From NCBI GenBank assembly GCA_002422765.1, contig DITI01000062.1, forward strand, positions 3,069-11,576: DNA of 8,508 nt, in the 5' to 3' direction. The DNA is from Candidatus Pacebacteria bacterium UBA6188. Lineage in GTDB: Bacteria > Patescibacteriota > Microgenomatia > UBA1400 > PJMF01. Shown in pieces: positions 1,596-8,508 of this stretch. The notes under the pieces are model-generated. The model saw only the letters and a program-made list of their open reading frames with translations, searched no databases and was not told the DNA's origin. A program made the position numbers and the translations under genes. Within the stretch, counting starts at the first letter, position 1. Every line of letters begins with the position of its first letter.

Positions 1596-2372
1596 ATGCT
1601 AGGAACCCAACTCGATCCTCACCAAATCATAGTAGTTGCTGATTTTGATGGTACTTTTACCAAAAAAGAAATCGACGGCAAGAAAACCTCGGCTCTCATG
1701 ACTGTTTTACAGGATGAGAAATACCTGGGTGTAGCTGGTAAAGCAGATTGCCAAGCTCTTTTTGAACATTATTATCCAATTGAACTTGATCCTAACTTAA
1801 GTGAAGCAAATAAGAGTGCTCTGATGCAAGAGTGGTGGGAGAAAACCTATGCGGTTTTTAAAAGAGAAAAAGTTTCTAAAGAGATGTTCTTGGAAGTTTG
1901 TGATTCGCCATTTTTACAGTGGCGAGATGATTTACTGACTTTTCTCCAATTGTTAAATCACAAATCAATTCCTTTAATCATTTTTTCGGCTGGAGGGTTT
2001 GGCAAACTTGCTATTGAGTATTTGCTTGATAAGGCAGGAGTTTTGACCGACAATATTCAGGTTTTTAGCAATCAGATAATTTTTGATCAAGATGGCTATT
2101 TCCAAGAGCCAGTTCGACCGATTGTGCACATTGCCAATAAAACTGGTGCTTTTTTGGTCAAGAATCAATTGATTGAGGCAAAGCCAGCTCGTCGCCAATG
2201 TTTGGTGATTGGTGACACCCTAGAGGACGCCAACATGGTTCAAGGTATTGATTTTGATTTGGTTTATAAAATAGCTTTTAGTGATTATCATCAAGACCAC
2301 TTCCAAGAAAAATTTGATTTAGTTCTGCCAAAAACTGGCTCATATCAGCCAATCATCGACTTGCTTGATTGA
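1596..2372 (+). CDS. HAD-family phosphatase resembling pyrimidine 5'-nucleotidase (UMPH-1/NT5C3)
   Basis: Likely a cytoplasmic Mg-dependent phosphatase that removes the 5' phosphate from a nucleoside monophosphate. HAD motif I is ADFDGTF, with nucleophile Asp16 and acid/base Asp18. Motif II is FSAGG (Ser131). Motif IV is GDTLED (206-211). Between motifs I and II lie HYYPIELDP (58-66) and EWW (79-81), which I recognise as hallmarks of the cap region of eukaryotic cytosolic 5'-nucleotidase III. The C-terminal part also follows that family (an IxxxNK segment before motif IV, then a terminal DLVL segment). At 258 residues it is near a UMPH-1 core. The start at 1596 is preferred because a -10 box ends at 1586; ATG 1587 would add three residues (MRL). 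It stands alone, with the tRNA-Leu promoter overlapping its stop. HAD membership is certain; the subfamily is likely, from remembered motifs; the substrate is inferred. Confidence 0.85.
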   Translation: MLGTQLDPHQIIVVADFDGTFTKKEIDGKKTSALMTVLQDEKYLGVAGKADCQALFEHYYPIELDPNLSEANKSALMQEWWEKTYAVFKREKVSKEMFLEVCDSPFLQWRDDLLTFLQLLNHKSIPLIIFSAGGFGKLAIEYLLDKAGVLTDNIQVFSNQIIFDQDGYFQEPVRPIVHIANKTGAFLVKNQLIEAKPARRQCLVIGDTLEDANMVQGIDFDLVYKIAFSDYHQDHFQEKFDLVLPKTGSYQPIIDLLD

Positions 2373-2392
2373 ACTTGAAAATAAGGTAGAAT
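2365..2392 (+). promoter_or_regulatory. Promoter of tRNA-Leu
   Basis: TTGATT (2365-2370) and TAGAAT (2387-2392), spaced 16 bases, form a good sigma-70-type promoter overlapping the stop codon of the HAD gene. Transcription would start near 2399, about 20 bases before the tRNA. The downstream lgt-like gene has no promoter of its own that I can see and may be read from here. Confidence 0.6.
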
Positions 2393-2418
2393 ATACTTCA
2401 TCTAAAGTTAGTCTTTTA

Positions 2419-2502
2419 GCCGAGATGGCGGAATTGGTAGACGCGTAGGTCTCAAAAACCTATGAAGGCAACTTCATGAGGGTTCGATTCCCTCTCCCGG
2501 CA
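2419..2502 (+). tRNA. tRNA-Leu, anticodon CAA
   Basis: Class II tRNA decoding UUG. The acceptor stem is GCCGAGA (2419-2425) with TCCCGGC (2495-2501), and the discriminator A is at 2502. The D arm has GCG/CGC around a loop containing TTGGTAGA. The anticodon stem TAGGT/ACCTA (2446-2450, 2458-2462) encloses CTCAAAA, giving anticodon CAA at 2453-2455. A long variable arm TGAAG-GCAA-CTTCA (2463-2476) is diagnostic of Leu/Ser/Tyr tRNAs. The T arm is GAGGG-TTCGATT-CCCTC (2478-2494). One acceptor pair (fifth) is an A-C mismatch. The 3' CCA is not encoded (ACAT follows the stem), so a CCA-adding enzyme is needed. Confidence 0.95.
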
Positions 2503-2521
2503 CATAGTCCTCATTCATCTT

Positions 2522-3319
2522 ATGCTACCAATCATTCTTGATTTGCCATTTTTTCGTCTAAAATCACTAACATTGCTGGTTTTCTTAGCTCTCTTTTTTT
2601 CAGCCTTTATTTTTTGGCGCAAGGGTAGAGAAGAACATTACAACACTTTTGAGATTTTTGACGCTTTTTTACTTTCTGGACTTTTTGGTTTTTTGGCAGG
2701 CAGACTGGCTTTTATAGTTTTTCACTGGTCACTTTTTTCAACTAATATTTTTCAAGTCTTTAATATTACTGGCAGACCAGGCAATGAGCCCTTAATTGCT
2801 TTGACAGCGGCCATTTGGTATCTTTACCGCTTAGCTAGCAAAAACAAATGGGATGCTTTTGAAATTTTAGACTTTTATGTGACAGGGATTAGTTTGGGAA
2901 TGATTTTTATCTACGCTGGTTTTTTCTTGGACGGGAGTTATGGCGGCACCTTTACCAAAATGCCTTGGGGAGTGATTGCTCTTGGTACTTTTGAAAAAAC
3001 CCATCCCACTCAACTTTACTCTCTATTTTATTATCTATTTGCTTATATTTACTTGAGTAAAATGGAATATAGTTACCGCACCTTAGAATGGTACCGCAGC
3101 GGCAAAAAAACCGCTCAATCTGGTTTTTTATTTAGTACTTTTTTGATTTTTACTGCTCTTTTTCATTTGGTGACTGGGCCGAGCCGATTGCCTAGTTTGT
3201 TTTTTAATGGTTTAGTTTTGGATTATTTTGTTTATTTCTTGGTCTTGGTTTTTGGTTTGGTTTTACTTTACAGAAGATCTGGTAGGTCTTTCAAGCTTTT
3301 TACAAGGCATAAGTCATGA
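2522..3319 (+). CDS. Divergent Lgt-like (prolipoprotein diacylglyceryl transferase family) membrane protein
   Basis: Polytopic membrane protein of 265 residues, close to Lgt length, with about seven hydrophobic segments (roughly 13-32, 46-68, 89-104, 115-136, 163-179, 199-222, 230-252). Lgt transfers diacylglycerol to the lipobox cysteine of prolipoproteins. Family traces are the GR at 60-61 after a hydrophobic stretch (Lgt GARL) and THPTQLY at 160-166 (Lgt RHPSQLYE). Other hallmarks are missing: no HGG motif with the essential histidine (the region reads TGRPGNEPL), and AGFFLDGSYGG at 132-142 replaces the GRxGNFxNGE signature, losing its arginine and asparagine. It may be an altered enzyme or a non-enzymatic relative. 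The ATG lies 19 bases after the tRNA with no clear Shine-Dalgarno. Its stop overlaps the next start (ATGA), so the two are probably co-translated. Family likely; activity uncertain. Confidence 0.75.
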   Translation: MLPIILDLPFFRLKSLTLLVFLALFFSAFIFWRKGREEHYNTFEIFDAFLLSGLFGFLAGRLAFIVFHWSLFSTNIFQVFNITGRPGNEPLIALTAAIWYLYRLASKNKWDAFEILDFYVTGISLGMIFIYAGFFLDGSYGGTFTKMPWGVIALGTFEKTHPTQLYSLFYYLFAYIYLSKMEYSYRTLEWYRSGKKTAQSGFLFSTFLIFTALFHLVTGPSRLPSLFFNGLVLDYFVYFLVLVFGLVLLYRRSGRSFKLFTRHKS

Positions 3320-4164
3320 AGCTAGAAGTTTTATTTGAAGACCAAGACGTGTTAGTAATCAACAAGCCAAGTGGCCTGGTGGTTAATAGGGCAGAGACAG
3401 TCAAAGAAAAAACCCTTCAAGATTATCTAGTAGAAAAGTTTGGCGAAGCTTATTTCCAAGCTCCTTTTTGGGAGGCAAAAAATGATCATCAAACGATGAT
3501 TCCAGCTGATTTTGTGAGTGATTTTGGTGATCCGCTAACCATTTGGCAGGAAAGGTTAGGCATCGTGCACCGTTTGGATAAGGATACTAGTGGCGTTTTA
3601 CTTTTAGCCAAAAATCCTGGTTCATTACTCAATCTTCTATCTCAATTCAAAAAACGCCAAACCAAAAAAACTTACTTGGCTTTAGTGCATGGTAAATTAA
3701 GTCAAAAGAGTGGAGAAATTAACGCCCCTTTGGGTCGCAGTCCTCATAATCGCCTCAAGTTTTCCGTTGATAATGATGGGCGCCAAGCCCTTACTCGCTA
3801 TAACATGCAGCAAGAATATGATGCTTTAAATCCAGAGACACTAGCTTTAGTCGCTCAAACTAGCAAAATTAAAGCCAAAAAAATTCAAGAACTTTACCAG
3901 GCTGGATTTTCACTAGTCCAATTACAGCCCCAGACTGGCCGCACACACCAGATCAGAGTCCATATGGCAGCTCTACAACACCCTTTAGTTGGAGATCAGC
4001 TTTATTCTGGCAAGAAAAGAAGCAAACTCGATGCTTTTTGGTGTCAGCGTCAATTTTTGCACGCTTTATCTTTGGAATTTACCCATCCAAGAAGCCAAAA
4101 ACAACTCAAAATCGAAGCCCCCTTGGCAAAAGATTTGCAGGATGTTATAATAAAACTTAGTTAA
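3316..4164 (+). CDS. RluA-family RNA pseudouridine synthase
   Basis: Converts specific uridines in rRNA or tRNA to pseudouridine. It has the RluA-family motifs in order: VINKPSGLVV (about 14-23), the catalytic HRLDKDTSGVLLLAKN with Asp88, KTYLALVHG, and QPQTGRTHQIRVHMA followed by HPLVGDQLYSG. There is no N-terminal S4 domain, since the protein begins at the catalytic fold. Two stretches are longer than in typical members: between KPSG and HRLD (about 25 extra residues, aromatic and acidic), and before the TGRTHQIR motif (lysine-rich). At 282 residues it is otherwise complete. The ATG overlaps the lgt-like stop by 4 bases, with AAGG about 8 bases upstream as a weak ribosome site. The target cannot be assigned from sequence, so I give no rluA/C/D symbol. 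A strong promoter for the next unit is embedded in its last codons. Confidence 0.92.
   Translation: MKLEVLFEDQDVLVINKPSGLVVNRAETVKEKTLQDYLVEKFGEAYFQAPFWEAKNDHQTMIPADFVSDFGDPLTIWQERLGIVHRLDKDTSGVLLLAKNPGSLLNLLSQFKKRQTKKTYLALVHGKLSQKSGEINAPLGRSPHNRLKFSVDNDGRQALTRYNMQQEYDALNPETLALVAQTSKIKAKKIQELYQAGFSLVQLQPQTGRTHQIRVHMAALQHPLVGDQLYSGKKRSKLDAFWCQRQFLHALSLEFTHPRSQKQLKIEAPLAKDLQDVIIKLS
4123..4151 (+). promoter_or_regulatory. Strong near-consensus promoter for the phosphoribosyltransferase leader
   Basis: TTGGCA (4123-4128, five of six matches), a 17-base spacer and a perfect TATAAT (4146-4151) preceded by TGt (extended -10) make this the best promoter in the window. It overlaps the end of the pseudouridine synthase gene, so the next transcription unit is independent. 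Predicted transcription start is about 4158. Confidence 0.8.
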
Positions 4165-4282
4165 CAATTAGATAAGAGTGCGAAAAGACGTTTAGTTTTT
4201 CGTATTCCCAAGCAACAATCCTGATTCACTAAATCAGGGGGATACCAAGCGAATAGGAAAAAGTAGACGTCTTTTTTGTTTT
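4158..4282 (+). ncRNA. Structured leader RNA or small RNA with built-in terminator
   Basis: Predicted transcript from the promoter at 4123-4151 to the U-run at 4271-4282. Bases 4183-4207 pair with 4251-4275 over 25 positions: 22 Watson-Crick pairs, one G-U and two G-G mismatches. The 43-base cap holds a second hairpin, CCTGATT/AATCAGG (4220-4226 with 4232-4238). It also has CCAAGC twice, directly after the 5' strand (4208-4213) and directly before the 3' strand (4245-4250). An alternative helix, GTATTCCC (4202-4209) with GGGGATAC (4238-4245), would replace the upper part of the main stem. Position before a purine-type phosphoribosyltransferase suggests a riboswitch or attenuator; an abundant small RNA is the alternative. 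I do not recognise the guanine, preQ1 or T-box core, nor SRP RNA. Confidence 0.6.
4183..4282 (+). terminator. Intrinsic terminator/attenuator ahead of the phosphoribosyltransferase gene
   Basis: The base of the long helix (AAAAGACGT at 4183-4191 with the facing strand 4267-4275) runs straight into CTTTTTTGTTTT (4271-4282), the stem-plus-U-tract layout of a Rho-independent terminator. It ends one base before the Shine-Dalgarno AAGGAG, so termination here would prevent expression of the downstream gene and read-through would permit it. Confidence 0.65.
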
Positions 4283-4288
4283 AAGGAG
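4283..4288 (+). promoter_or_regulatory. Strong Shine-Dalgarno of the phosphoribosyltransferase gene
   Basis: AAGGAG lies 8 bases before ATG 4297 and fixes that start. It follows the U-tract of the terminator directly, so it is available only in read-through transcripts. Confidence 0.75.
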
Positions 4289-4296
4289 CTAAATCT

Positions 4297-4893
4297 ATGC
4301 AGTTTACAACAATTTCTTTCCCTGGTGACCAGGCTAAGTACATTACGCCCACTTGGGATCAGCTTGATGAGCTTACCCTACAAATTGCTAAACAAATTAA
4401 AGTCAAAGCTGAAAATTTTGACTTAGTAGTTGCTCTAGCCAAGGGTGCTTGGCCCATGAGCAGGTCATTGGTAGATTATTCTCAGATCAAAGAACTAGCT
4501 AGTTTGGGAGTTAAATTTTACAAAGGTATCAATCAACGTTTAAGCGAACCAAGTGTCTATCAGGAGTTACCAATTGAAATAAAAAATAAAAAAATTCTTT
4601 TATTTGATGATGTGGCTGACACTGGTGAATCACTACGTTTTGCTAAAGATTACTTGTTACAAAAAGGAGCCAAGGAAGTCAAAGTGGCAACCCTACTTTA
4701 CAAGCCTTGGTCAGTAGTTGAGCCAGATTATTATGGAGCGACAACTGAAGCTTGGATAATTTTTCCTTTTGAACGACGAGAAATGATTGATCTTTTAGGA
4801 AAAAGCTGGACCAAGCAAGGCCTTGATCAAGAAAATATCCTCAAACGCTATCAACAGTTAGGTTTTATGGAGGTTTATAGAAGTGTCTGTTGA
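4297..4893 (+). CDS. Purine-type phosphoribosyltransferase
   Basis: Type I phosphoribosyltransferase of 198 residues, expected to join a free base to PRPP to make a nucleoside monophosphate in the cytoplasm. The PRPP-binding signature ILLFDDVADTGESL is at about 100-113 (acidic pair Asp104-Asp105, loop DTGES at 108-112). Earlier, LVVALAKGAWPMSRSLVD (about 43-60) is the PRTase loop region. The later ATLLYKPWSVVEPDYYG and AWIIFPFE segments resemble archaeal-style xanthine/hypoxanthine-guanine phosphoribosyltransferases, so purine salvage is the best guess. There is no HTH or other fused domain, so this is not an evident PurR/GfcR-like regulator. It has its own strong promoter, a terminator-bearing leader and a strong ribosome site. 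Its end overlaps the next gene by 11 bases. Family is sure; base specificity is inferred. Confidence 0.88.
   Translation: MQFTTISFPGDQAKYITPTWDQLDELTLQIAKQIKVKAENFDLVVALAKGAWPMSRSLVDYSQIKELASLGVKFYKGINQRLSEPSVYQELPIEIKNKKILLFDDVADTGESLRFAKDYLLQKGAKEVKVATLLYKPWSVVEPDYYGATTEAWIIFPFERREMIDLLGKSWTKQGLDQENILKRYQQLGFMEVYRSVC
4869..4873 (+). promoter_or_regulatory. Shine-Dalgarno that sets the GTG start of the next gene
   Basis: GGAGG, 9 bases before GTG 4883, lies inside the end of the phosphoribosyltransferase gene. It supports the unusual GTG start and translational coupling of the two genes. Confidence 0.75.
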
Positions 4894-5734
4894 AGTTATT
4901 GATTTAACTAGAATCAAAGCCGAACAAGCAGCTCGAACCGAGCGCCGTCTTAATTTGCAAGATGCCTTTGCTGAAATTTCACATTTAGTAGTAAACACTG
5001 GCACCCACATGAAAGCTGAGGCAGCGGCCACCATTGCTGCTAATCTGGTTAATCCCAACATTAGACTTGATTCTGATCGAGTAATTATTCAACCCTCCAA
5101 AAAAGAAGAGCCGACTAGCCTGTGGGCAAGACAAGTTTCTCGTTTCAAGGCTAAGACAGCTAGAGAAGAATATGTTGCTGATCAAATGGATGATCCTAAT
5201 TTCTTTTTTGCACAACTAGCCAACGTGGTTTTCTATGGAGCAGACATTAACGCTTTCACAGAAGATCCTGAAACCGGCCTGGTAGTGCCGAGCCATAAGA
5301 AGGCTAGAGAATTTCCTGTGACTTTGCCAGAGTCAGAATATGTTAAGTTGCGTGACAAACTTTATAGACACTACGTTAATCCGCCGGGTGGGAAGGTAAG
5401 GGTAATTTGGGATATTTCAGCCTCAACTATTAATGGGCGCAACCATGACTTCACTGATTTGGTTGAAGTTATAGCCGATCCTTTAGATGCTGAGCTTTTG
5501 GAAATTTATCTAGCTCAAGCAGTAGCAGATGGTAAAATTCTTAATTCCAATACTCATTTAGCAGCTTTTGAAATGCTGTGTGAGAGTCATAAAATTAAAA
5601 CCACGTCGAGGTTGCCTTACGAATTGAGAAGAAAAGGTTACAAATTTGCTGACTTCCGTCAATCGCCCAAGCCAGAAGAATTATTGGCGATCAGACGCTC
5701 TATCAATAATAATCAGCCAGTTTACGTGGCTTAA
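4883..5734 (+). CDS. Protein of unknown function, coupled to the phosphoribosyltransferase
   Basis: A 283-residue protein I do not recognise. It starts at GTG with a perfectly spaced GGAGG and overlaps the upstream gene by 11 bases, so both are made from one mRNA. It looks soluble: no membrane segment and no signal peptide. The N-terminal 45 residues are helix-rich with many Ala/Arg/Glu. The middle (about 70-125) is charged with aromatic patches (DDPNFFFAQLANVVFYG). A more globular part follows with KVRVIWDISASTINGRNHDFTDLVEVIADP (about 171-200, given here as two adjoining pieces: KVRVIWDISASTING and RNHDFTDLVEVIADP). The C-terminus is basic (TTSRLPYELRRKGYKFADF). There is no Walker motif, HTH, zinc-binding cysteine pattern or nuclease signature; it has a single cysteine. 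Base composition matches the neighbours. The linkage hints at nucleotide metabolism or its control, but that is inference. Confidence 0.8.
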   Translation: MSVEVIDLTRIKAEQAARTERRLNLQDAFAEISHLVVNTGTHMKAEAAATIAANLVNPNIRLDSDRVIIQPSKKEEPTSLWARQVSRFKAKTAREEYVADQMDDPNFFFAQLANVVFYGADINAFTEDPETGLVVPSHKKAREFPVTLPESEYVKLRDKLYRHYVNPPGGKVRVIWDISASTINGRNHDFTDLVEVIADPLDAELLEIYLAQAVADGKILNSNTHLAAFEMLCESHKIKTTSRLPYELRRKGYKFADFRQSPKPEELLAIRRSINNNQPVYVA

Positions 5735-5897: not shown

Positions 5898-6521
5898 ATG
5901 AAAACTAGAGAACACAAGTTAGACTTATTATTAGCGATTTATATTACTTCGATTGTGGCAGCCGAGTTAATGGGAGCCAAAACTTTCCCATTGTGGATTT
6001 TTAATGCTTCAGTGGCAATTTTTACTTTGCCGATTACTTTTATTATCAATGACGTGGTGACCGAGGTGGAGGGTCGAGCTAGAGCCTTGAGCTTTATGCG
6101 TAGCACCTTTCTAATTTTACTTTTTTTACTAGCTTTTAATTTGTTGGCAATTAGTTTGCCACCTAGTAGTAGAGCAGCGGCTTTTGAACCGGCTTACCAG
6201 ACTATTTTTTCCAAGTCTTTGCGCATTACCATTGCTAGCTTAACTGCGTTTTTTGTGGCTGAACGCCTCGATATTTATATTTTTAGTAAAATTCGAGCGC
6301 GTTTGAAAAATAGTGGCTTGTGGTTGCGTAGTAATGTGTCAAATATTGTTAGTATGTTTTTTGACACCAGCATTTTTATGTTTTTGGCTTTCTTCGAACC
6401 AGGCAACGCTAAATTTGTCTGGTCTTTGGTTTTGCCATACTGGGGACTAAAATGTCTTTTCTCGATGGTAGAAACCCCAGCGACTTATTTAGCTGTTAAT
6501 TGGCTCAAGAAATCAAAATAA
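5898..6521 (+). CDS. Queuosine precursor transporter, YhhQ/VUT family
   Basis: Integral membrane protein of 207 residues with about six hydrophobic segments (roughly 8-24, 30-50, 68-90, 108-122, 148-168, 172-192). YhhQ-family proteins import queuosine precursors (preQ0/preQ1 or queuine) used to modify the wobble base of GUN-anticodon tRNAs. The family pattern is visible: FIINDVVTEVEG (about 48-59) matches the usual D(V/I)xTEVYG signature with Tyr replaced by Glu, and RSNVSNIVSMFFDTSIFM (about 143-160) matches the SNxxSQxxDT segment with Gln replaced by Met. Length is typical. The gene has a possible promoter of its own and lies 30 bases ahead of glyA, so the two are probably co-transcribed. 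No preQ1 riboswitch core is seen upstream. The family is well supported; the exact precursor is unknown. Confidence 0.85.
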   Translation: MKTREHKLDLLLAIYITSIVAAELMGAKTFPLWIFNASVAIFTLPITFIINDVVTEVEGRARALSFMRSTFLILLFLLAFNLLAISLPPSSRAAAFEPAYQTIFSKSLRITIASLTAFFVAERLDIYIFSKIRARLKNSGLWLRSNVSNIVSMFFDTSIFMFLAFFEPGNAKFVWSLVLPYWGLKCLFSMVETPATYLAVNWLKKSK

Positions 6522-7910: not shown

Positions 7911-8079
7911 TATATTAATTCTTACTTTTTAAAGACAGGTCGTTGAAGAGCTGAATATTGATAATAAGCGTTAAACATGTTTCTAAACAGCGATTTCACC
8001 GAGTGAGAAGAAGATTGTTAATTTAAATAAGCAAGAATTTTTAGTCGAACGTACCTGAATTTAAAAAGTAAGAATTAAT
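7911..8079 (+). promoter_or_regulatory. folD leader with long base-paired ends; candidate cis-regulatory RNA
   Basis: The 190-base gap between glyA and folD contains no credible gene. Bases 7912-7933 pair perfectly with 8060-8081, the 3' arm running into the folD ATG (8080-8082). After a 2x2 internal loop the helix continues with CAGGT/ACCTG (7936-7940, 8053-8057) and, past one bulged base, CGTT/AACG (7941-7944, 8048-8051). The roughly 100-base interior has a TTTCAC-CGA-GTGAGA hairpin (7994-8008) and a 9-codon frame, MFLNSDFTE (7977-8006), with no ribosome site. No recognisable Shine-Dalgarno precedes folD. With the -10 at 7899-7904 the mRNA 5' end would mask its own start codon. I do not recognise a known THF-riboswitch core. 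Confidence 0.5.
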
Positions 8080-8081
8080 AT
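7912..8081. repeat. Perfect 22-bp inverted repeat enclosing 126 bases
   Basis: The arms 7912-7933 and 8060-8081 are perfect reverse complements, and inner pairing extends the similarity by about nine more bases. Imperfect direct repeats lie at the edges: ATGACTAAT (7903-7911) and ATGACTCTAAT (8080-8090). This is also the outline of a small non-autonomous terminal-inverted-repeat element with a degenerate target duplication. No transposase is present. It may equally be the closing stem of a leader RNA. Confidence 0.8.
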
Positions 8082-8508
8082 GACTCTAATTTTTAACGGT
8101 GAGCAACTGGCCAAGCGCAAAGCCTTAAAGCTGAAGGCGAAGGTTTTGGCCTATCAAGCCAAGGGTATTCAACCCAAAATTGCGGCGGTTTTTTTCAAGG
8201 AAGATCAGGCTAGTGCTCTTTACACAGCTCTTAAAAAACAAAGCGCTGAAAATCTCGGCATTGCCTACCAAGCCAAGGCTTTTTCTTTTGCTGATAAAGT
8301 CGAATTAATTCAAAGTCATCTCGATGACTTAAGCGCTGATCCAAACATCACTGGTATCATCATTCAAAAACCCTGGACCAAGAAATGGTTGGAAGCGGTG
8401 CCAAATGGTGACTTTGCTAGTTGGTGGTCCAGTTTGGTGAGTCATATTGCGACCAAGCAGTCTCATGGCGTCAATAAAGATGTTGATGGTTTGGCTCCAG
8501 CCACTTTG
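8080..8508 (+). CDS. folD: FolD, methylenetetrahydrofolate dehydrogenase/cyclohydrolase, 3' end cut by the window
   Basis: Bifunctional cytoplasmic enzyme oxidising 5,10-methylenetetrahydrofolate to methenyl-THF and hydrolysing it to 10-formyl-THF, downstream of GlyA. The frame is open to the last base (143 codons, about half the usual 280-300 residues), so the NAD(P)-binding half lies outside. Seen are the N-terminal FNGEQLAKR, KIAAVFFKEDQASALYTALK with the family's Tyr48 and catalytic Lys52 (YxxxK), GIIIQKPW with Gln96 (family VQLPLP), and NKDVDGLAP (Asp134 and Asp136). It is divergent: QLPLP has become QKPWT, and the stretch between it and KDVDG is about 15 residues longer, rich in Trp and Ser. 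ATG 8080 is the only reasonable start and lies in the base-paired leader. Identification is good from motif order and context. Confidence 0.85.
   Translation, partial: MTLIFNGEQLAKRKALKLKAKVLAYQAKGIQPKIAAVFFKEDQASALYTALKKQSAENLGIAYQAKAFSFADKVELIQSHLDDLSADPNITGIIIQKPWTKKWLEAVPNGDFASWWSSLVSHIATKQSHGVNKDVDGLAPATL

What the first reader, a model, noticed from the sequence alone, without database searches (positions are those of the whole stretch)
4123..4296. Terminator-bearing structured leader before a purine-type phosphoribosyltransferase: candidate riboswitch or attenuator
A near-consensus promoter drives a 125-base segment whose 25-position helix (4183-4207 with 4251-4275) ends in a U-tract one base before the Shine-Dalgarno. 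The cap has a 7-bp hairpin, CCAAGC repeated on both sides of the internal loop, and an alternative helix (4202-4209 with 4238-4245) competing with the top of the main stem. Leaders of purine salvage genes are often ligand-controlled, but I do not see the known guanine-aptamer core, so a new RNA class is possible. A constitutively terminated small RNA fits too.
Basis: partly seen in the sequence, partly recalled or inferred. Interest (0 to 1): 0.72.

Follow-up and report, generated by a model that had tools for sequence, protein, structure and literature searches.

The report
New purine-gene RNA switch in Patescibacteria
In one order of ultra-small Patescibacteria, a conserved RNA leader that matched no catalogued RNA family in our searches sits mostly in front of purine-recycling genes and is predicted to fold in two competing ways, so it likely acts as a switch that turns those genes off when a purine-type molecule binds it.

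Summary
Window 4176-4282 is one copy of an RNA family found in 40 of 88 genomes of its order, with no credible member in the class and phylum samples outside it. No Rfam match. On 42 distinct sequences, 27 of 29 stem pairs change on both sides; the internal loop CCAAGYAACRA / GGAAACCAAGY is nearly invariant. The stem ends in a U-tract in 40 of 43 copies; in two others it covers the Shine-Dalgarno. Downstream genes are mostly purine enzymes (HGPRT-like, adenosine deaminase, guaA, guaB, purA, purB, PNP) and fast-evolving relatives of the window's second gene, whose model has the Maf fold. Best reading: a new riboswitch-like class, an OFF switch for purine salvage; ligand unknown, binding untested. 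The main rival is a protein-sensed attenuator. Many loci share one syntenic slot, so the gene contexts are not all independent.

The parts
4123..4151 (+). sigma-70-type promoter TTGGCA-17-TATAAT inside the 3' end of the upstream rluD-like gene
   Evidence: 11 of 12; sites of 10 or more of 12 upstream of 21 of 40 copies, shuffles 0.9
4176..4187 (+). 5' arm of the antiterminator hairpin P0
   Evidence: sequence GAGTGCGAAAAG
4196..4207 (+). 3' arm of P0, which is also the upper 5' strand of the terminator/P1 stem (mutually exclusive)
   Evidence: sequence TTTTTCGTATTC
4183..4207 (+). 5' strand of the P1/terminator stem
4208..4219 (+). conserved core, 5' side (CCAAGCAACAAT; consensus CCAAGYAACRAH)
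4220..4238 (+). P2 hairpin, variable in sequence and length, covarying
4239..4250 (+). conserved core, 3' side (GGGATACCAAGC; consensus DGGAMACCAAGY)
4251..4275 (+). 3' strand of the P1/terminator stem
4272..4282 (+). U-tract TTTTTTGTTTT of the intrinsic terminator
   Evidence: sequence; 40 of 43 copies have 6 or more T in 8
4283..4288 (+). Shine-Dalgarno AAGGAG of the phosphoribosyltransferase gene, outside the terminator
   Evidence: sequence
4297..4893 (+). HGPRT-like phosphoribosyltransferase, first gene behind the leader
   Evidence: Pribosyltran 2.1e-15; best NCBIfam match TIGR01203 HGPRTase, 52.8 bits, below its cut-off of 150
4883..5734 (+). Maf/ITPase-fold protein of 283 aa, second gene, overlapping the first

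Best explanation
The leader at 4176-4282 belongs to a conserved RNA family that lies mostly in front of purine-salvage genes in one order of Patescibacteria and likely works as an OFF riboswitch, in which a bound purine-type ligand would stabilise the intrinsic terminator. As the RNA is made, a 5' hairpin (P0, 4176-4187 with 4196-4207) is predicted to form first. It ties up the strand needed for the terminator, so transcription would run on into the phosphoribosyltransferase and Maf-like genes. If a ligand occupies the conserved internal loop (4208-4219 and 4239-4250), the P1 stem would be stabilised, displace P0 and zip down into the terminator that ends in the U-tract, and transcription would stop before the Shine-Dalgarno. 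Shown by sequence comparison: both helices and their covariation, their overlap, the near-invariant loop, the terminator sequence and the gene contexts. Inferred: ligand binding, its purine nature, and the OFF direction.
For: Family: 33 of 138 relatives with model R1, 40 of 88 order genomes with R2. Terminator stem: 91.1% of cells paired, 27 of 29 pairs with changes on both sides, covariation 0.640 against 0.225 shuffled and 0.209 at most when slid. P0: in 34 of 43 copies a hairpin beats composition shuffles at p<0.05; swapping 5' arms among 34 sequences gives 14.43 +- 0.47 against 18.43 observed, 0 of 20,000. Folding of growing transcripts: P0 holds for 3' ends 4205-4265, the terminator takes over from 4269. 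Core positions near-invariant in 41-42 sequences. The expression platform varies while the core stays: U-tract in 40 of 43, SD occluded in L107 and L108. Genes: all 11 genomes of the window's genus and of genus g4 have the PRT first; of the 29 other element-bearing order genomes, 23 have a known purine enzyme or a Maf-like protein among the first three same-strand genes: ADA-guaB-guaA, guaA-guaB, purB-purA, PNP, PRTs. Tandem pairs in G028. Known purine riboswitch: 0 of 88 genomes, two control genomes found.
Against: No ligand was tested and nothing here separates a small molecule from a protein. Alone, the terminator fold is far more stable (-37 kcal/mol against about -22 for the P0 state), so the switch would have to be under kinetic control, or the default is OFF. 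Many loci share one slot (lgt-rluD-element-X-glyA), so gene contexts are not independent. Of the 29 other genomes, 3 (G045, G048, G069) have first genes with no recognised purine link, and 3 more (G022, G025, G040) are linked only by homology to leading genes of gua/pur operons. P0 does not reach p<0.05 in 9 of 43 copies (L081, L093, L095, L098, L100-L104), and for L095, L098 and L104 swapped arms score better than their own. The alignment was fitted to the terminator structure, which favours it. Order members outside the window's family score lower (28-57 bits), and one phylum hit of 38 bits (G419) lacks the core, so weak hits were accepted only because the core is visible in them.
Confidence: 0.66

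Rival explanations
1. A protein-sensed attenuator: an RNA-binding protein, perhaps a PyrR-like phosphoribosyltransferase or a Maf-like product of the operon itself, binds the conserved loop and tips the same two-helix switch.
For: The first gene is a phosphoribosyltransferase with weak resemblance to PyrR models (25.2 bits, cut-off 140); the repeated CCAAG on both loop strands could suit a dimeric protein (inference).
Against: The window-type PRT is not found at E<=1e-20 in 14 of the 40 element-bearing order genomes, so it is unlikely to be the general sensor, though genomes are incomplete and divergent PRTs exist (G067). First genes differ widely. No protein cluster covers all loci, although the stretches read were short.
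Confidence: 0.2
2. A constitutively terminated small RNA that acts in trans and merely sits beside purine genes.
For: Own promoter and strong terminator; in L015-L018 repeats separate it from the PRT gene by 90-247 nt.
Against: 41 of 43 copies are followed by a same-strand open frame within 250 nt; L107 and L108 have no U-tract but put the SD into the stem; an sRNA does not explain the covarying competing P0 helix.
Confidence: 0.07
3. An ordinary intrinsic terminator of the upstream lgt-rluD operon, conserved by descent.
For: It follows the rluD stop codon directly (4164) and many copies share this slot.
Against: Promoters upstream of the stem well above shuffles, near-invariant unpaired loop, P0 covariation, copies outside the slot such as ADA-guaB-guaA (L085) and tandem copies (L065/L090).
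Confidence: 0.04
4. A riboswitch for a one-carbon or folate-type ligand rather than a purine.
For: glyA and folD lie further downstream in many loci, the window included.
Against: glyA belongs to the shared slot and follows after other genes; copies outside it (L085, L095, L080, L083, L094) have purine or Maf-like genes and no glyA in the stretch read.
Confidence: 0.08

Closest known systems
Xanthine-I riboswitch (NMT1 motif)
   Same: A hairpin with a conserved internal junction, purine-related genes including an adenosine deaminase, OFF switch (PMC7373994, passages)
   Different: NMT1 is reported only from Proteobacteria and almost never with terminators; its junction G7-A8-A9-G10-C11-G12 (PMC8266621, passages) is not CCAAGYAACRA / GGAAACCAAGY; no Rfam match here
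Purine riboswitch family RF00167 (guanine, adenine, 2'-dG)
   Same: 5' leaders of purine salvage genes, terminator control (recalled)
   Different: Three-way junction with loop-loop contact (recalled); here one stem, one internal loop, one hairpin; 0 of 88 order genomes match RF00167
PRPP riboswitch (ykkC subtype 2b)
   Same: Controls purine metabolism (title and abstract start of PMC5912903 in the listing)
   Different: Different fold (recalled); no Rfam match
PyrR attenuator of pyr operons
   Same: Antiterminator against terminator, phosphoribosyltransferase in the operon (recalled)
   Different: PyrR senses by protein and controls pyrimidine genes (recalled); here purine genes, and the window-type PRT is not found in 14 of 40 genomes

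Membership tests
Riboswitch (general kind) | Conserved, aptamer-like core in 5' leaders | tested here: met
Riboswitch (general kind) | Expression platform with mutually exclusive helices | tested here: met
   P0 and P1 share 4196-4207; both covary; U-tract or predicted SD occlusion; switching itself not measured
Riboswitch (general kind) | Downstream genes share a metabolic theme | tested here: met
   Purine genes or Maf-like proteins; 3 of 29 genomes outside the two PRT-first genera lack any link, 3 more only by homology, and many loci share a slot
Riboswitch (general kind) | Direct binding of a small ligand | not testable with these tools
   Needs in-line probing or transcription assays
Purine riboswitch RF00167 | Match to the family covariance model | tested here: not met
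   Window E<=1 none; 0 of 88 order genomes, B. subtilis and L. lactis controls found
Xanthine-I riboswitch (NMT1) | Match to an Rfam family model / NMT1 junction sequence | tested here: not met
   No match over the element among 4227 families at E<=1 in the window and ten loci; junction differs from passages. That NMT1 is in this Rfam copy is recalled
PRPP, ZTP, T-box, 6S RNA | Match to an Rfam family model | tested here: not met
   that these families are in the library is recalled
PyrR-type protein attenuator | Regulatory phosphoribosyltransferase encoded in every genome with the leader | tested here: inconclusive
   Window-type PRT not found at E<=1e-20 in 14 of 40 element-bearing genomes; divergent PRTs and incomplete genomes not excluded
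Maf/ITPase superfamily (window 4883-5734) | Maf fold | tested here: met
   Predicted model; catalytic function not tested

The most novel reading that the evidence does not exclude
A riboswitch class of its own, so far seen only in one order of Patescibacteria, whose ligand is a purine intermediate (such as hypoxanthine, guanine, IMP or a non-canonical purine nucleotide) and whose aptamer is the cap of the terminator itself; through it these bacteria ration purine salvage, interconversion and Maf-type nucleotide clean-up from one signal.
Probability: 0.5. Interest if true: 0.85.

Novelty: new variant of a known kind. Interest (0 to 1): 0.74.

Why it matters
Patescibacteria largely depend on outside nucleotides (recalled), and I found no description of how they sense them: in the held paper library the only paper with both 'riboswitch' and 'Patescibacteria', 'Microgenomates' or 'CPR bacteria' speaks of synthetic riboswitches. 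A compact leader with a defined loop makes the question directly testable in a tube without culturing the organism. It also points to a set of fast-evolving Maf-like proteins as part of purine metabolism in these cells, and its terminator-as-aptamer layout would be a simple ready-made OFF switch.

Tried and rejected
Known RNA families: window and ten loci against 4227 Rfam families at E<=1, only a tRNA and matches that look like chance, none over the element. Spread outside the order: class sample 233 genomes, 9 hits at E<=0.001, all in the order; phylum sample 379 genomes, 7 hits at E<=0.01, of which one lies outside the order (G419) and lacks the CCAAG core, so I count it as false; both runs used stricter filters that lose weak matches. 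Strict core pattern in 379 phylum genomes: 1 hit, same family; the pattern needs GAG after the core and so misses the window's own genus. Viral contigs: 20 pattern matches, 0 of 20 confirmed by the model. Own genome: one copy. Phyla other than the window's own were not searched. Leader peptide: none seen in the leader by eye. Minus-strand model hits are the near-palindromic stem read backwards, dropped from the later alignments. Literature: searches gave no description of this RNA in titles and abstract starts of the listings; of the papers I saw passages of three (PMC11665869, PMC7373994, PMC8266621); subscription papers and preprints are not held.

Rows dropped: one search used 34 of 43 copies (one each for two genera, without L102, whose element duplicates that of L101, and without L109); one search used 40 of 43 (L109, L102 and one copy at a contig end left out).

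Full report
What was checked. The 139-nt leader 4158-4296 folds at -39 kcal/mol against a shuffled mean of -22.8 (z -4.58, 0 of 200). The window lies in a genome of 776,431 bases in 66 contigs. The nearest named records are Candidatus Microgenomatus sp. (89% identical PRT) and Candidatus Pacebacteria UBA6180; that these are Patescibacteria is recalled. Genes around it: dnaB, a UMPH-1-type phosphatase, lgt, an rluD-like gene, the PRT, a 283-aa protein, a Vut_1 transporter, glyA and folD (gene names beyond the Pfam matches are mine).

Conservation. Upstream regions of the PRT in relatives carry the same element. In G018 (L025) it lies behind the PRT and in front of the next gene, so it does not belong to the PRT as such. 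A covariance model from 12 sequences found it in 33 of 138 relatives; a second model from 34 sequences found it in 31 of 42 family genomes, 40 of 88 order genomes, 9 of 233 class genomes, all in the order, and 7 of 379 phylum genomes, one of them (G419) outside the order and without the core.

Structure. On alignment A5 (43 copies, 42 distinct, the core-less L109 included) the terminator structure has 91.1% standard pairs, 27 of 29 pairs with changes on both sides and a covariation score of 0.640, against 0.225 +- 0.011 shuffled and at most 0.209 slid. The alignment was fitted to this structure, which helps it, but the unfitted MAFFT alignment of 12 sequences already had 14 of 29 pairs with both-sided changes. 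The unpaired loop is the best conserved part: CCAAG on the 5' side 39-41 of 41 at each position, the AAC that follows 31, 41 and 40 of 41, GG on the 3' side 38 and 36 of 42, ACCAAG 40-42 of 42.

The second state. Just 5' of the core most copies have a hairpin such as GCGAAAGC..GCUUUCGC (window: GAGUGCGAAAAG / UUUUUCGUAUUC). 34 of 43 copies beat shuffles of their own composition at p<0.05; 9 do not (L081, L093, L095, L098, L100-L104). Swapping 5' arms between 34 sequences lowers the mean score from 18.43 to 14.43 +- 0.47, and 0 of 20,000 permutations reach the observed value, so as a set the arms coevolve, although L095, L098 and L104 score worse than with swapped arms. The 3' arm is the upper 5' strand of the terminator stem, so both cannot form. 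Folding growing transcripts of the window puts P0 in place for 3' ends 4205-4265 and the terminator from 4269.

Expression platforms. 40 of 43 copies have six or more T in eight after the stem. Of the other three, L109 is the core-less hit; in L107 and L108 the 3' strand of the stem contains the Shine-Dalgarno (AAGGA, AGGAGG), paired in the predicted fold. Both kinds would give OFF when P1 forms. 41 of 43 copies are followed by a same-strand open frame within 250 nt, 37 of them within 125 nt; L101 ends with its contig and L109 shows none. 21 of 40 copies tested have a promoter-like site of 10 or more of 12, shuffles 0.9 on average, 4 at most.

Genes. Eleven genomes of genera g1 and g4 have the PRT first; in G006 a GMP-synthase-like gene follows. 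Among the other 29 element-bearing order genomes, 23 have a purine enzyme or a Maf-like protein among the first three same-strand genes: adenosine deaminase, IMP dehydrogenase, GMP synthase-like (G020, the last gene cut by the stretch); a 395-aa protein, GMP synthase, IMP dehydrogenase (G034); adenylosuccinate lyase and synthetase as third and fourth genes (G039); a purine nucleoside phosphorylase superfamily member (G075); PRTs (G024, G054, G031, G067); Maf by Pfam (G016). Three more (G022, G040, G025) start with relatives of the leading genes of G034 and G039. Three (G045, G048, G069) show no link. Many loci share the slot lgt-rluD-element-X-glyA, so these are not independent draws; what changes inside the slot is which gene follows, and copies outside the slot (G020, G054, G015, G032, G038) have purine or Maf-like genes as well.

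What it is not. No Rfam match over the element at E<=1 in the window or ten loci. The classic purine riboswitch is absent from all 88 order genomes while two control genomes ring. The xanthine-I riboswitch is the nearest in layout, but its junction sequence, host range and platform differ (PMC7373994 and PMC8266621, passages only). The window-type PRT as sensor fits poorly: 14 of 40 element-bearing genomes lack it at E<=1e-20.

Verdict. A real RNA family, not in Rfam, with the two-state anatomy of a riboswitch or attenuator, attached mostly to purine salvage genes. The mechanism I commit to is an OFF switch by ligand-stabilised P1/terminator. Ligand binding, ligand identity and direction are inferred.

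Noticed in passing
window 7911-8082: About 170 nt before folD, bounded by an inverted repeat of about 20 bp, fold z -6.58; partial copies at 73-81% identity elsewhere in the same genome, so a MITE-like repeat that reaches the folD start codon.
   Followed up: partly
L015-L018, between the terminator and the PRT gene: Dispersed hairpin repeat TTTCGGACCC..GGTACGAAA in 6 of 8 genomes of the genus, up to 9 exact matches per genome, some in tandem, none in the window's own genome.
   Followed up: partly
L090 (G028) 2306-3787: Two tandem pairs of the element, each pair before a Maf-like gene.
   Followed up: partly
L107 2413-2510 and L108 6038-6129: Copies without a U-tract in which the stem is predicted to cover the Shine-Dalgarno.
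   Followed up: yes
upstream of several elements (L016-L018, L056, L059, L065, L069, L071): A recurring GTCCTATAA-like motif near the promoter, seen by eye; meaning unknown.
   Followed up: no
window 5952-5983, minus strand: Sub-threshold CRISPR-DR34 match, 23.2 bits against 35; likely chance.
   Followed up: no
L081, L096, L098 and L082, L091 first genes: Two unnamed families of 337-395 aa, some with weak HD-domain resemblance, that lead gua and pur operons in G034 and G039.
   Followed up: partly
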